Shown: positions 61,637 to 64,000 of the stretch, piece after piece
How the letters are laid out: every line of letters starts with the position of its first letter
How positions within the stretch are numbered: position 1 is the stretch's first letter
Source: Prochlorococcus sp. AG-442-N17
GTDB lineage: Bacteria > Cyanobacteriota > Cyanobacteriia > PCC-6307 > Cyanobiaceae
Direction: 5' to 3'
Length of the DNA: 64,000 bases
Assembly: GCA_003212375.1 (NCBI GenBank)
Contig: QCPY01000001.1
Location: 62,001 to 126,000 of the forward strand
The notes under the pieces: model-generated
Told to the model about the DNA's origin: nothing
Seen by the model: the letters and a program-made list of their open reading frames with translations, nothing else
The model's database searches: none
Position numbers and translations under genes: made by a program

Positions 61637-61765
61637 TATTCCGTCAAGCTAAATTAAATTAAATATTATTTCTTGTTTAAGCTATTGCTATTACTTGACT
61701 TAGTAGACTATGACTGACATTTTGTGCTATAATAATTTGGTTCAAATACAACTGAATAACCCTAT

Positions 61766-61852
61766 GGAGGGGTGGTCGAGTGGTTTAAGGCTCTAGTCTT
61801 GAAAACTAGCGTGTCTGCAAGGGCACCGTGGGTTCGAATCCCACCCCCTCCG
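61766..61852 (+). tRNA. tRNA-Ser (anticodon UGA)
   Basis: 87-nt type II tRNA; GGAGGGG/CCCCTCC acceptor stem, CTTGAAA anticodon loop, long variable arm, GGTTCGAATCC T-arm. Confidence 0.96.
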
Positions 61853-61855
61853 TTT

Positions 61856-61972
61856 TTAGAAAGCAGTCATATGTCGCCATAAGTCTTCATAAGCTTTCAA
61901 AATAATTGTAAGAGTAGATATAAAGCCAAAAATATAAAATTTAAGAATCTTAGCTATTTCATAATTCATCAT
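61856..61972 (-). CDS. putative micropeptide directly 3' of tRNA-Ser
   Basis: MMNYEIAKILKFYIFGFISTLTIILKAYEDLWRHMTAF, TM-like. Confidence 0.25.
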   Translation of the reverse strand: MMNYEIAKILKFYIFGFISTLTIILKAYEDLWRHMTAF

Positions 61973-61995: not shown

Positions 61996-62042
61996 TTTGT
62001 TGGTGGATTTGTTGGTGGATTTTTAAATAATGTTGGTGGATT
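61996..62042. repeat. short-repeat array, three copies of GTTGGTGGATT
   Basis: Copies at 61999, 62011 and 62032; 23-nt block 61996-62018 recurs identically at 63978-64000. Confidence 0.85.
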
Positions 62043-62072
62043 GAAGTCAGAATTAATTATCGATATAAAATA

Positions 62073-62094
62073 AGGGGCAATTAGCTCCTTTTTT
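62073..62094 (+). terminator. putative terminator hairpin just upstream of the cassette ORF
   Basis: AGGGGC-aatta-GCTCCT-TTTTT immediately after a TAA closing the FVGG frame. Confidence 0.45.
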
Positions 62095-62095
62095 A

Positions 62096-62557
62096 ATGGA
62101 TAATCCAATAGATAATATTGGGAAAAATGAGAAATTACTTAGAGCCTCAAAAGATTTCCAGAAATTAGGTGAAGGAAAGAAAAGAAGGCGTTTATTAAAA
62201 GAAGCACAAAGAAAAGATGGTACTTACATAGCTGTTAAGACCCCAAAACAAATTGAAGAAGAAAGAATTAGAGAAGAAGAAATAAGAGAAAAATTGATAG
62301 AACTAGAAAACGTTTCACATTTTGAAAGACCTGAAGGAATGTCTGACGAAGAATACACTAGAAAAATAGTAGAAATGGAAGCTGAAATATGTGGAATTGC
62401 TCCTGCAAGTCCTAGGATAAATGGACCAATTACAGGACAAATTAGTCGTGATTTTTATAGCGGTAGTAATACTCCCCAAATTAAAACAGGTCCAAGAGGT
62501 GGGAAATATACATTAGGTAGAACTAAAAATGGAAGACCTTATAGGAGATATTTTTAA
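62096..62557 (+). CDS. cassette protein 1: charged helical protein with C-terminal basic adaptor-like module
   Basis: 153 aa ending GPRGGKYTLGRTKNGRPYRRYF. Confidence 0.75.
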   Translation: MDNPIDNIGKNEKLLRASKDFQKLGEGKKRRRLLKEAQRKDGTYIAVKTPKQIEEERIREEEIREKLIELENVSHFERPEGMSDEEYTRKIVEMEAEICGIAPASPRINGPITGQISRDFYSGSNTPQIKTGPRGGKYTLGRTKNGRPYRRYF

Positions 62558-63048
62558 TGGATAAAAATTATAGAGGCAATGCAAGTCAGTTTTTCATAGC
62601 AGGCGAATTATGTAGGAGGGGATATTCAGCTGTAGTCACTTTAGGAAATACCCCAAATACTGATATCTTATGCAGCAATTTAGAAGGTACTAAGTTTGTA
62701 CATATTCAAGTTAAAACATTTGTTCCCTCTAATAAAACCTGTTCCGTTGGTAAAAAAGCAGAGAAGAATTATGGGGATAATTTCTTTTGGATATTAGGAG
62801 GAATTCCCAGACCAGGGGATGAAACAAACTTTATTTATTACATAATTCCTTCTCCCATAATTTCTAAAAATGTCACTAGGATTCATCAAAATTGGCTCGA
62901 TACACCAGCTAGAGACGGTTCCAAACACAATGAAACTACAATGAGAACAGTTGATATCCCTCCTTACAAAATTCGTCAAGAAAATCTTAGATGGGATTTA
63001 AGTGACTATGAAAATAGATGGGATTTAATCGAGGCGAAACTAAAATGA
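62557..63048 (+). CDS. cassette protein 2: putative PD-(D/E)XK nuclease-fold protein
   Basis: 'GNASQFFIAGELCRRGYSAVVTLGNTPNTDILCSN...VHIQVKTF' fits E...D-x(n)-QxK layout; start overlaps the upstream stop. Confidence 0.6.
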   Translation: MDKNYRGNASQFFIAGELCRRGYSAVVTLGNTPNTDILCSNLEGTKFVHIQVKTFVPSNKTCSVGKKAEKNYGDNFFWILGGIPRPGDETNFIYYIIPSPIISKNVTRIHQNWLDTPARDGSKHNETTMRTVDIPPYKIRQENLRWDLSDYENRWDLIEAKLK

Positions 63049-63395
63049 AACGCTTACTATTTCCACTACTAGCATCCCTCGCTCTACCTACTGCTGTTAA
63101 TGCTGAAGCTACTTATTTAACTTGTGATTTAAACGATAACCCTAAAAAGGTTGACATAACACTTAATCAGAATCAAGGAAAAGTTACTTATATCTATCCT
63201 GAGTCTGGAAGCACTTGGACTGTACCAGCACAATTTACAAATACTGCGATTTTATATAGTTCAGGTATAGCTAATTGGCAGTTAGATAGAACTAATGGAA
63301 AAATCTATGTAAAATTCGTTTTATCAAATGGTTCGGTTCTTAGTTCGGCAGAAGGCAACTGCAAAAAAGCTGAAAAAACTAAAACCTTGTTTTAA
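63045..63395 (+). CDS. cassette protein 3: small exported protein
   Basis: Signal peptide MKRLLFPLLASLALPTAVNAEA; start taken at 63045 overlapping the upstream stop. Confidence 0.7.
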   Translation: MKRLLFPLLASLALPTAVNAEATYLTCDLNDNPKKVDITLNQNQGKVTYIYPESGSTWTVPAQFTNTAILYSSGIANWQLDRTNGKIYVKFVLSNGSVLSSAEGNCKKAEKTKTLF

Positions 63396-63644
63396 ATGAA
63401 ACGCTTACAAAAGCACGTAAAAAAAAATTGGTTTTGGTATTCACTTTTAATTGTCATATTGAGTGCTGTTCTTGCGCCAATGCTTTTAATTGTTCCATTA
63501 TTTATTGGAGTAGTGATTCTTTTTGCTAAAAATGCTACTTTTCAATCTTCTAATGACTCAGAAGTTTCAATCGGGAAAAGAGGCGGAAGATATGAAATGA
63601 GAATTTCTGAAAAAACTGGTAAACCTTATAGACATTATTTTTAA
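63396..63644 (+). CDS. cassette protein 4: two-TM-like protein with C-terminal basic adaptor-like module
   Basis: 82 aa ending GKRGGRYEMRISEKTGKPYRHYF. Confidence 0.72.
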   Translation: MKRLQKHVKKNWFWYSLLIVILSAVLAPMLLIVPLFIGVVILFAKNATFQSSNDSEVSIGKRGGRYEMRISEKTGKPYRHYF

Positions 63645-63929
63645 ATGAAAGAAGTTTTAATAGCAGCTACTAGAAGTTCACTTGAGGAATATCAAAACAA
63701 AATAGATATTGAAAATGTGGTTAGATTTGGAATAATCTTTCTATTTTTATTTACAGTTCTTTGGTTTACTCTTTCTTTAAGAAGAAAAAATGGTGTCAAA
63801 AGAAAACCTTGGCGACCATTTCAAACTGAAGGTACTTATGAATCTCTTAAAGTTTTCTATGGGAAGAGAGGAGGTAGATATAGAATCAGATACAACAATA
63901 ATGGGGAACCATATAGGGATTATTTTTAA
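63645..63929 (+). CDS. cassette protein 5: one-TM protein with C-terminal basic adaptor-like module
   Basis: 94 aa ending GKRGGRYRIRYNNNGEPYRDYF. Confidence 0.72.
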   Translation: MKEVLIAATRSSLEEYQNKIDIENVVRFGIIFLFLFTVLWFTLSLRRKNGVKRKPWRPFQTEGTYESLKVFYGKRGGRYRIRYNNNGEPYRDYF

Positions 63930-64000
63930 ATGAAACGATTAAAACTTGCCGAAATATTATTATTTCTACCAGAAAAGTTTGTTGGTGGATTTGTTGGTGG
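63930..64000 (+). CDS. cassette ORF 6, truncated by window end
   Basis: MKRLKLAEILLFLPEKFVGGFVGG...; starts directly after the previous stop. Confidence 0.5.
   Translation, partial: MKRLKLAEILLFLPEKFVGGFVG
63978..64000. repeat. second copy of the 23-nt TTTGTTGGTGGATTTGTTGGTGG repeat
   Basis: Identical to 61996-62018; truncated by window end. Confidence 0.85.

What the first reader, a model, noticed from the sequence alone, without database searches (positions are those of the whole stretch)
62489..63926. Three different cassette proteins share one C-terminal module ending in PYRxYF-COOH
The ORFs at 62096, 63396 and 63645 have unrelated N-termini (charged helical, two-TM, one-TM). All end in G-[PK]-R-G-G-[KR]-Y-x(n)-G-x-P-Y-R-x-Y-F followed directly by the stop. 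Sequences: GPRGGKYTLGRTKNGRPYRRYF, GKRGGRYEMRISEKTGKPYRHYF, GKRGGRYRIRYNNNGEPYRDYF. This resembles the PBCV-specific basic adaptor domain (GPRGGKYY...) known mainly from large algal viruses. A shared C-terminal tag on soluble and membrane proteins in one operon suggests a common partner, such as nucleic acid, a capsid/packaging component or a sorting machinery, in a mobile or satellite element.
Basis: partly seen in the sequence, partly recalled or inferred. Interest (0 to 1): 0.82.

Follow-up and report, generated by a model that had tools for sequence, protein, structure and literature searches.

The report
Shared C-terminal mini-domain on mobile cargo
Three otherwise unrelated small proteins on a tiny mobile element of an ocean cyanobacterium end in the same 22-residue mini-domain, a distant cousin of a tail known from algal viruses and phages, which recurs on some 20 unrelated small proteins of marine cyanobacteria, several of them beside DNA-cutting enzymes, and so probably docks them to DNA or to a shared partner.

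Summary
ORFs 62096, 63396 and 63645 have unrelated bodies and one shared C-terminal module. A profile built only from tails outside this genome finds exactly these three in the window (E 3e-13 to 2e-8; next 0.26). The tail sits on about 20 unrelated protein bodies in Prochlorococcus, Synechococcus, Cyanobium and two IMG/VR phage contigs. An exact-pattern scan of 84,980 species genomes hit only picocyanobacteria.

The tail is selected as a peptide (pN<pS in 97-100% of pairs) and is predicted to be a three-stranded beta-meander. Yet its 66-80 bp of DNA is shared, sharply bounded, between unrelated genes, so it also moves as a module. It is not a PBCV_basic_adap member by the Pfam test, but is distantly related. 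Bacterial-phage tails GPRGGKYYIN..GNKVYV do match PF08789, and a close homologue of ORF 63645 carries a tail resembling those.

The genes lie in a 2.2-kb element without integrase in tRNA-Ser(TGA). In four other loci the tail gene abuts a T5orf172/MUG113 GIY-YIG nuclease gene; here one abuts a PD-(D/E)XK-like gene. Best guess: a cytoplasm-facing docking or nucleic-acid-binding tail on defence-like cargo. Anatomy is shown; function is inferred. New variant of a known kind.

The parts
61765..61853 (+). tRNA-Ser(TGA), the integration target
   Evidence: ARAGORN
61840..61858 (+). left attachment core CCCACCCCCTCCGTTTTTA (tRNA 3' end); the second copy lies at L002:2573, about 70 bp past the window end
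   Evidence: 114-nt direct repeat, 73%, with an identical core
61999..62042 (+). left-end repeats GTTGGTGGATTTGTTGGTGG plus a third GTTGGTGGATT; possible recombinase arm sites
   Evidence: 20-mer found exactly twice in L002, 0 expected in shuffles; function inferred
62053..62095 (+). diverged copy of an island leader/promoter-like element (TTGACAGTCGATMTAAAATAAGGGGCAATTAGCTCCTTTTTT) directly before the first gene
62096..62557 (+). soluble charged protein, 153 aa, tail at 62489-62554; body related to L050, L046, L038
62557..63048 (+). PD-(D/E)XK-like nuclease candidate (D..IQVKT), start overlaps the stop of the tail gene (TAATG); 88% identical to the homologue in L026
   Evidence: PF11645 E 0.032, below cut-off; phrog_29029 9e-8
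63045..63395 (+). secreted small protein (signal peptide), ATGA overlap; no tail
   Evidence: sequence
63396..63644 (+). membrane protein, 82 aa, probably two TM; tail at 63573-63641
   Evidence: tail fold predicted
63645..63929 (+). one-TM protein, 94 aa, K/R-rich on the tail side; tail at 63861-63926
63930..64000 (+). start of an ORF (MKRLKLAEILLF...) that runs into the right-end repeats; apparently truncated
63981..64000 (+). right-end repeat GTTGGTGGATTTGTTGGTGG

Best explanation
The tail is a 22-23-residue C-terminal mini-domain (three-stranded beta-meander, net charge about +5), a lineage-specific divergent relative of the PBCV_basic_adap type of tail. It is carried as an exchangeable module by cargo proteins of small tRNA-integrated elements of picocyanobacteria. 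It probably acts as a docking tail: very different bodies (soluble charged, one-TM, two-TM) present the same basic beta-hairpin to the cytoplasm, where it binds nucleic acid or a common partner. In several loci the partner gene is co-translated and encodes a nuclease, so the likeliest role is in defence-like cargo that brings a nuclease and DNA together, often at the membrane, as SNIPE does in one chain. Shown: the module, its distribution, peptide-level selection, modular DNA exchange, mobile context, adjacency to nuclease genes. Predicted: fold and cytoplasmic side. Inferred: binding and defence.
For: Leave-window-out profile hits; about 20 unrelated bodies; no Pfam domain better than E 0.0047 on any of 29 tail proteins; restricted to picocyanobacteria among 84,980 species genomes for the strict pattern, only the same family matched among 386 cyanobacterial genomes by profile. 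pN<pS in 97-100% of pairs, synonymous sites near saturation between AT-rich and GC-rich genomes. DNA sharing confined to about -80..0 from the stop between unrelated genes at 85-92%. AlphaFold2: strands at 10-12, 18-23, 30-34, pLDDT 93-96 over the tail. Tail net charge mean +4.8; tail side K/R-richer in 8 of 10 TM proteins, one tie and one unresolved two-TM case. Stop of the tail gene overlaps or abuts the next start in many loci, including all three here. T5orf172/MUG113 genes abut the tail gene in L022, L026, L031, L047; Mrr in L022 and L065. PF08789 bridge. PBCV proteins A278L and A282L, with kinase and basic adaptor domains, were recovered from virion DNA by DNase (PMC3281028). SNIPE: membrane-bound GIY-YIG nuclease with diversified N-termini that cuts entering phage DNA (PMC13190303).
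Against: No binding or defence assay exists. Foldseek to Cren7-DNA complexes is not significant (E 0.66 or worse). Most tail genes have no nuclease next to them, and island cassettes mix freely, so adjacency may partly be co-residence. Of 30 T5orf172 loci retrieved, only the L026 locus has a tail within the fetched flank, so the nuclease does not need the tail. Related Bacteroidetes-phage tails are on proteins with signal peptides, where cytoplasmic DNA is not at hand. PADLOC finds no defence family in any tail protein or in the window nuclease.
Confidence: 0.45

Rival explanations
1. The tail matters at the DNA level: about 70 bp at the 3' end of cargo genes act as a seam for recombination that swaps bodies, and the peptide is incidental.
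For: Sharp DNA sharing limited to the tail between unrelated genes; tail-only remnants L028, L033, L034, L035; a second repeated module, the leader element, between genes.
Against: pN<pS in 97-100% of pairs, with synonymous saturation between genera; confident independent fold; a homologous body in G116 with a different but analogous tail.
Confidence: 0.15
2. A sorting or turnover signal: the free C-terminus -YR.YF is read by a host protease, secretion or membrane machinery.
For: All recovered tails lie at the extreme C-terminus, most ending in F or Y; carriers are of every topology.
Against: No recognisable housekeeping carrier; sporadic occurrence, 15 of 266 genus genomes; some tails end otherwise (YTK, HYV, RYI); related tails elsewhere carry extra residues.
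Confidence: 0.2
3. A packaging or virion-incorporation tag of a phage satellite, recognising the helper's packaging or capsid proteins.
For: L070 cyanophage contig: tail gene, then a 72-aa gene, then terminase large subunit; PBCV basic-adaptor kinases associate with virion DNA (PMC3281028); the element lacks an integrase.
Against: Only 2 of 2.9 million viral contigs match the strict pattern; no match in 50,697 phage records for the tail; several carriers are membrane proteins; the Bacteroidetes relatives checked lie among small hypothetical genes, in one phage near a repressor and a recombinase.
Confidence: 0.12

Closest known systems
PBCV_basic_adap (PF08789), PBCV-specific basic adaptor domain
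   Same: Short basic Gly/Tyr tail with G-x-[RK]-G-G-x-Y, a second strand ending at a conserved Tyr, fused to different bodies; an HMM of PF08789-type phage tails ranks picocyanobacterial tails above shuffles.
   Different: No tail reaches the Pfam model; second half is xx[ST]Kx-G-xx-Y-[RK]-x-Y-F at the terminus instead of YYIN..G.KVYV.
phrog_16207 (unknown function) of Cellulophaga and crAss-like phages
   Same: Same mini-domain order G.RGG.Y....SK.G..Y[RK].Y at the C-terminus; hhalign 97.8% with the picocyanobacterial tails; ORF 63396 aligns to it exactly at the tail, E 0.16.
   Different: Carriers are small signal-peptide proteins and the tail is followed by a few more residues; the compared set was gathered with a motif pattern, which inflates the hhalign score.
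Tycheposons of Prochlorococcus
   Same: Cargo between copies of a tRNA 3' end, in a hotspot that is empty in related genomes.
   Different: 2.2 kb and no recombinase gene; would need one in trans. The papers read here describe tycheposons only second-hand (PMC10872708, PMC11389934).
SNIPE (PD-lambda-1)
   Same: Diversified N-terminal membrane anchors, cytoplasmic part, GIY-YIG nuclease (PMC13190303); the L026 nuclease hits PD-Lambda-1 at 2.5e-7.
   Different: Here anchor/tail and nuclease are separate genes and no DUF4041 was found; the window nuclease is PD-(D/E)XK-like.

Membership tests
PBCV_basic_adap (PF08789) | match to the Pfam model at its curated cut-off of 20.4 bits | tested here: not met
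   0 of 29 tail proteins, 0 of 14 isolated tails at E<=10, none in the own genome; the same library does match phage GPRGGKYYIN tails at 1e-7
PBCV_basic_adap (PF08789) | G-[PKA]-[RK]-G-G-x-Y first strand | tested here: met
   columns G1, G4, G5 invariant and Y7 nearly so in 30 tails
PBCV_basic_adap (PF08789) | second half YYI-x3-G-x-K-x-Y | tested here: not met
   tails have a longer turn and G-x-x-Y-R-x-Y-F; a homologue of ORF 63645 in G116 has GAKGGVYYISYRGTKVY
Tycheposon / tRNA-integrated element | direct repeats of a tRNA 3' end at both ends of the insertion | tested here: met
   L026 shows the clean case against empty sites
Tycheposon / tRNA-integrated element | tyrosine recombinase in the element | tested here: not met
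   five complete genes, none an integrase; L021 has one near another tail gene
SNIPE | one chain with TM, DUF4041 and GIY-YIG domain | tested here: not met
   separate genes; no such domains in tail proteins
Phage satellite | mobilised and packaged by a helper phage | not testable with these tools
   needs infection experiments

The most novel reading that the evidence does not exclude
Picocyanobacterial mobile cassettes carry a split, modular entry-defence system: interchangeable membrane or soluble sensors share one cytoplasmic mini-domain tail that recruits a separately encoded GIY-YIG or PD-(D/E)XK nuclease to incoming phage DNA, and the tail is exchanged between sensors as a 70-bp DNA module.
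Probability: 0.18. Interest if true: 0.85.

Novelty: new variant of a known kind. Interest (0 to 1): 0.62.

Why it matters
Most genes of Prochlorococcus genomic islands have no assigned function. A common C-terminal module on about 20 unrelated proteins gives one handle on many of them at once: find what the tail binds, and a whole class of island cargo gets a role. It also extends a tail type named after algal viruses into bacterial mobile elements and phages, and offers a clear case of a coding segment being reshuffled as a unit of about 70 bp.

Tried and rejected
Duplicated-gene explanation: rejected, bodies unrelated. Housekeeping carriers: none found. HemP (PF10636) match of one isolated tail, E 0.012: one of 14, not seen in full proteins, treated as chance. 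Solved structures: no sequence match below E 1; Foldseek best recurring family Cren7-dsDNA, E 0.66 or worse, not used as evidence. Searches used a pattern one base short and are void (so is the pattern); the corrected pattern was checked on known loci and rerun. tRNA-Pro end repeats seemed specific to tail genomes but are genus-wide, so they are background. Tail consensus against phage and plasmid records: no match.

Full report
Observation. The three ORFs and their tails are at the coordinates given. A profile made from 27 tails found outside this genome recovers exactly these three in the six-frame translation of the window (E 3e-13, 7e-11, 2e-8; next 0.26). The bodies do not resemble each other, so this is a shared module and not a recent duplication.

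Distribution. The profile finds the tail in 15 of 266 genus genomes and in 20 of 400 family genomes from 10 of 59 genera; in 386 genomes drawn across the phylum only genomes of the same family match. A DNA pattern for G..GG.[YF]-x7-G-x2-[YF]R.Y[FY]-stop, checked on known loci (in a slightly stricter form), was run over 84,980 species genomes and gave 16 loci, all from Prochlorococcus, Synechococcus, Cyanobium or an uncultured cyanobacterium; my own estimate of chance hits is below one. It gave two viral contigs. One, L070, is a cyanophage-like contig with the tail gene followed by a 72-aa gene and the terminase large subunit, closest to Synechococcus phage S-H1 and KBS-S-2A. Thirty distinct tail proteins fall into about 20 unrelated body types. 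None has a convincing Pfam or PADLOC domain.

Peptide or DNA. Pairs of tails show fewer nonsynonymous than synonymous differences in 97% (AT-rich pairs) to 100% (mixed and GC-rich pairs) of cases, with mean pS 0.94 and pN 0.32 between AT-rich and GC-rich genomes. The peptide is therefore under purifying selection. At the same time the DNA of the tail is shared at 85-92% between genes with unrelated bodies, starting 66-80 bp before the stop and ending at it, for example L022 with L025, L025 with ORF 63396, L023 with ORF 63645. Body and tail types are also mixed: ORF 63645 and L027 have 69% identical bodies, but the tail of ORF 63645 is nearest that of L023 and the tail of L027 nearest those of L026 and L024. 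Tail-only remnants exist. So it is a selected peptide that also travels as a DNA module.

Structure and relatives. AlphaFold2 on an alignment of 42 tails predicts a three-stranded beta-meander with pLDDT 93-96 over the tail. Relaxed patterns bring in small signal-peptide proteins of Bacteroidetes phages with the same C-terminal order (phrog_16207; Cellulophaga and crAss-like phages); hhalign with the picocyanobacterial tails gives 97.8%, inflated because the set was gathered with a motif. A third type, GPRGGKYYINSKGNKVYV, is found at the end of most matching proteins in 45 phage contigs and does match PF08789 at up to 1e-7. An HMM of that type ranks 29 real tail proteins above the best of 1,800 shuffles; hhalign of the two profiles gives 88% over the first 12 columns. 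A homologue of ORF 63645 in genome G116 (81% over 54 aa) ends in GAKGGVYYISYRGTKVY, which resembles this third type but does not itself reach PF08789. The tail is thus best called a divergent relative of the PBCV_basic_adap kind, outside the Pfam model.

Mobile context. tRNA-Ser(TGA) lies at 61765-61853; its 3' end and about 110 bp of downstream sequence recur at L002:2570, just past the window. The interval between this tRNA and the next conserved gene is about 70-85 nt in ten of 30 related loci, 0.3-1.3 kb in five, longer or not linked in the rest. In L026 a different 2.4-kb insertion at the same site is flanked by exact tRNA-end copies and continues on the right as the empty site does. It holds a tail gene, a T5orf172 nuclease and a homologue of the window's PD-(D/E)XK-like gene. 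Neither element shows an integrase gene. Many other tail genes lie in arrays of 1-4-kb cassettes bounded by the 30-nt end of tRNA-Pro(TGG), but such arrays are genus-wide.

Function. In L022, L026, L031 and L047 a T5orf172/MUG113 (GIY-YIG) gene abuts the tail gene; in L026, L047 and here the downstream start overlaps the tail stop. Such nucleases are rare, about 75 in 265 genus genomes. Eleven of 15 genomes with a tail have one against 53 of 250 others (Fisher p 5e-5), without correction for clade. Where transmembrane segments are resolved the tail side is usually the K/R-rich, cytoplasmic side, and the L047 nuclease itself carries several hydrophobic segments (sequence). In SNIPE a membrane anchor with diversified N-termini places a GIY-YIG nuclease on entering phage DNA (PMC13190303); in ICP1 Odn a T5orf172 nuclease gained a DNA-binding domain by shuffling (PMC8263062); two PBCV kinases with the basic adaptor domain were recovered from virion DNA (PMC3281028). 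Together these make a docking or nucleic-acid-binding tail in defence-like cargo the best guess. No step of binding or defence is shown.

Noticed in passing
window 62053-62095; L022:2290, L028, L033, many genus genomes: A repeated leader TTGACAGTCGATMTAAAATAAGGGGCAATTAGCTCCTTTTTT directly before island genes, found in Prochlorococcus only (34 of 60 genomes searched, none of those from other genera). Looks like a promoter plus short 5' hairpin shared by cargo genes.
   Followed up: partly
L024, L030, L029, L027, L022, L025: Tandem arrays of 1-4-kb cassettes separated by the 30-nt 3' end of tRNA-Pro(TGG), up to 12 copies per genome, in 51 of 61 genus genomes.
   Followed up: partly
window 61999-62042 and 63981-64000: GTTGGTGGATTTGTTGGTGG repeats inside both ends of the element, possibly recombinase arm sites; absent from the other tail loci.
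   Followed up: partly
L193:1020-1358: Homologue of ORF 63645 whose tail is GAKGGVYYISYRGTKVY, a natural tail replacement.
   Followed up: yes
window 63930 onward: A sixth ORF, MKRLKLAEILLF..., starts at the stop of the last tail gene and runs into the end repeats, as if cut by a recombination event.
   Followed up: no
L022:4895-4992, L028:2513-2611: Copies of the small RNA Yfr13 (RF02364) in the same islands.
   Followed up: no
genus genomes: Genomes with the tail carry a T5orf172 nuclease more often (11 of 15 against 53 of 250); clade effects not removed.
   Followed up: partly
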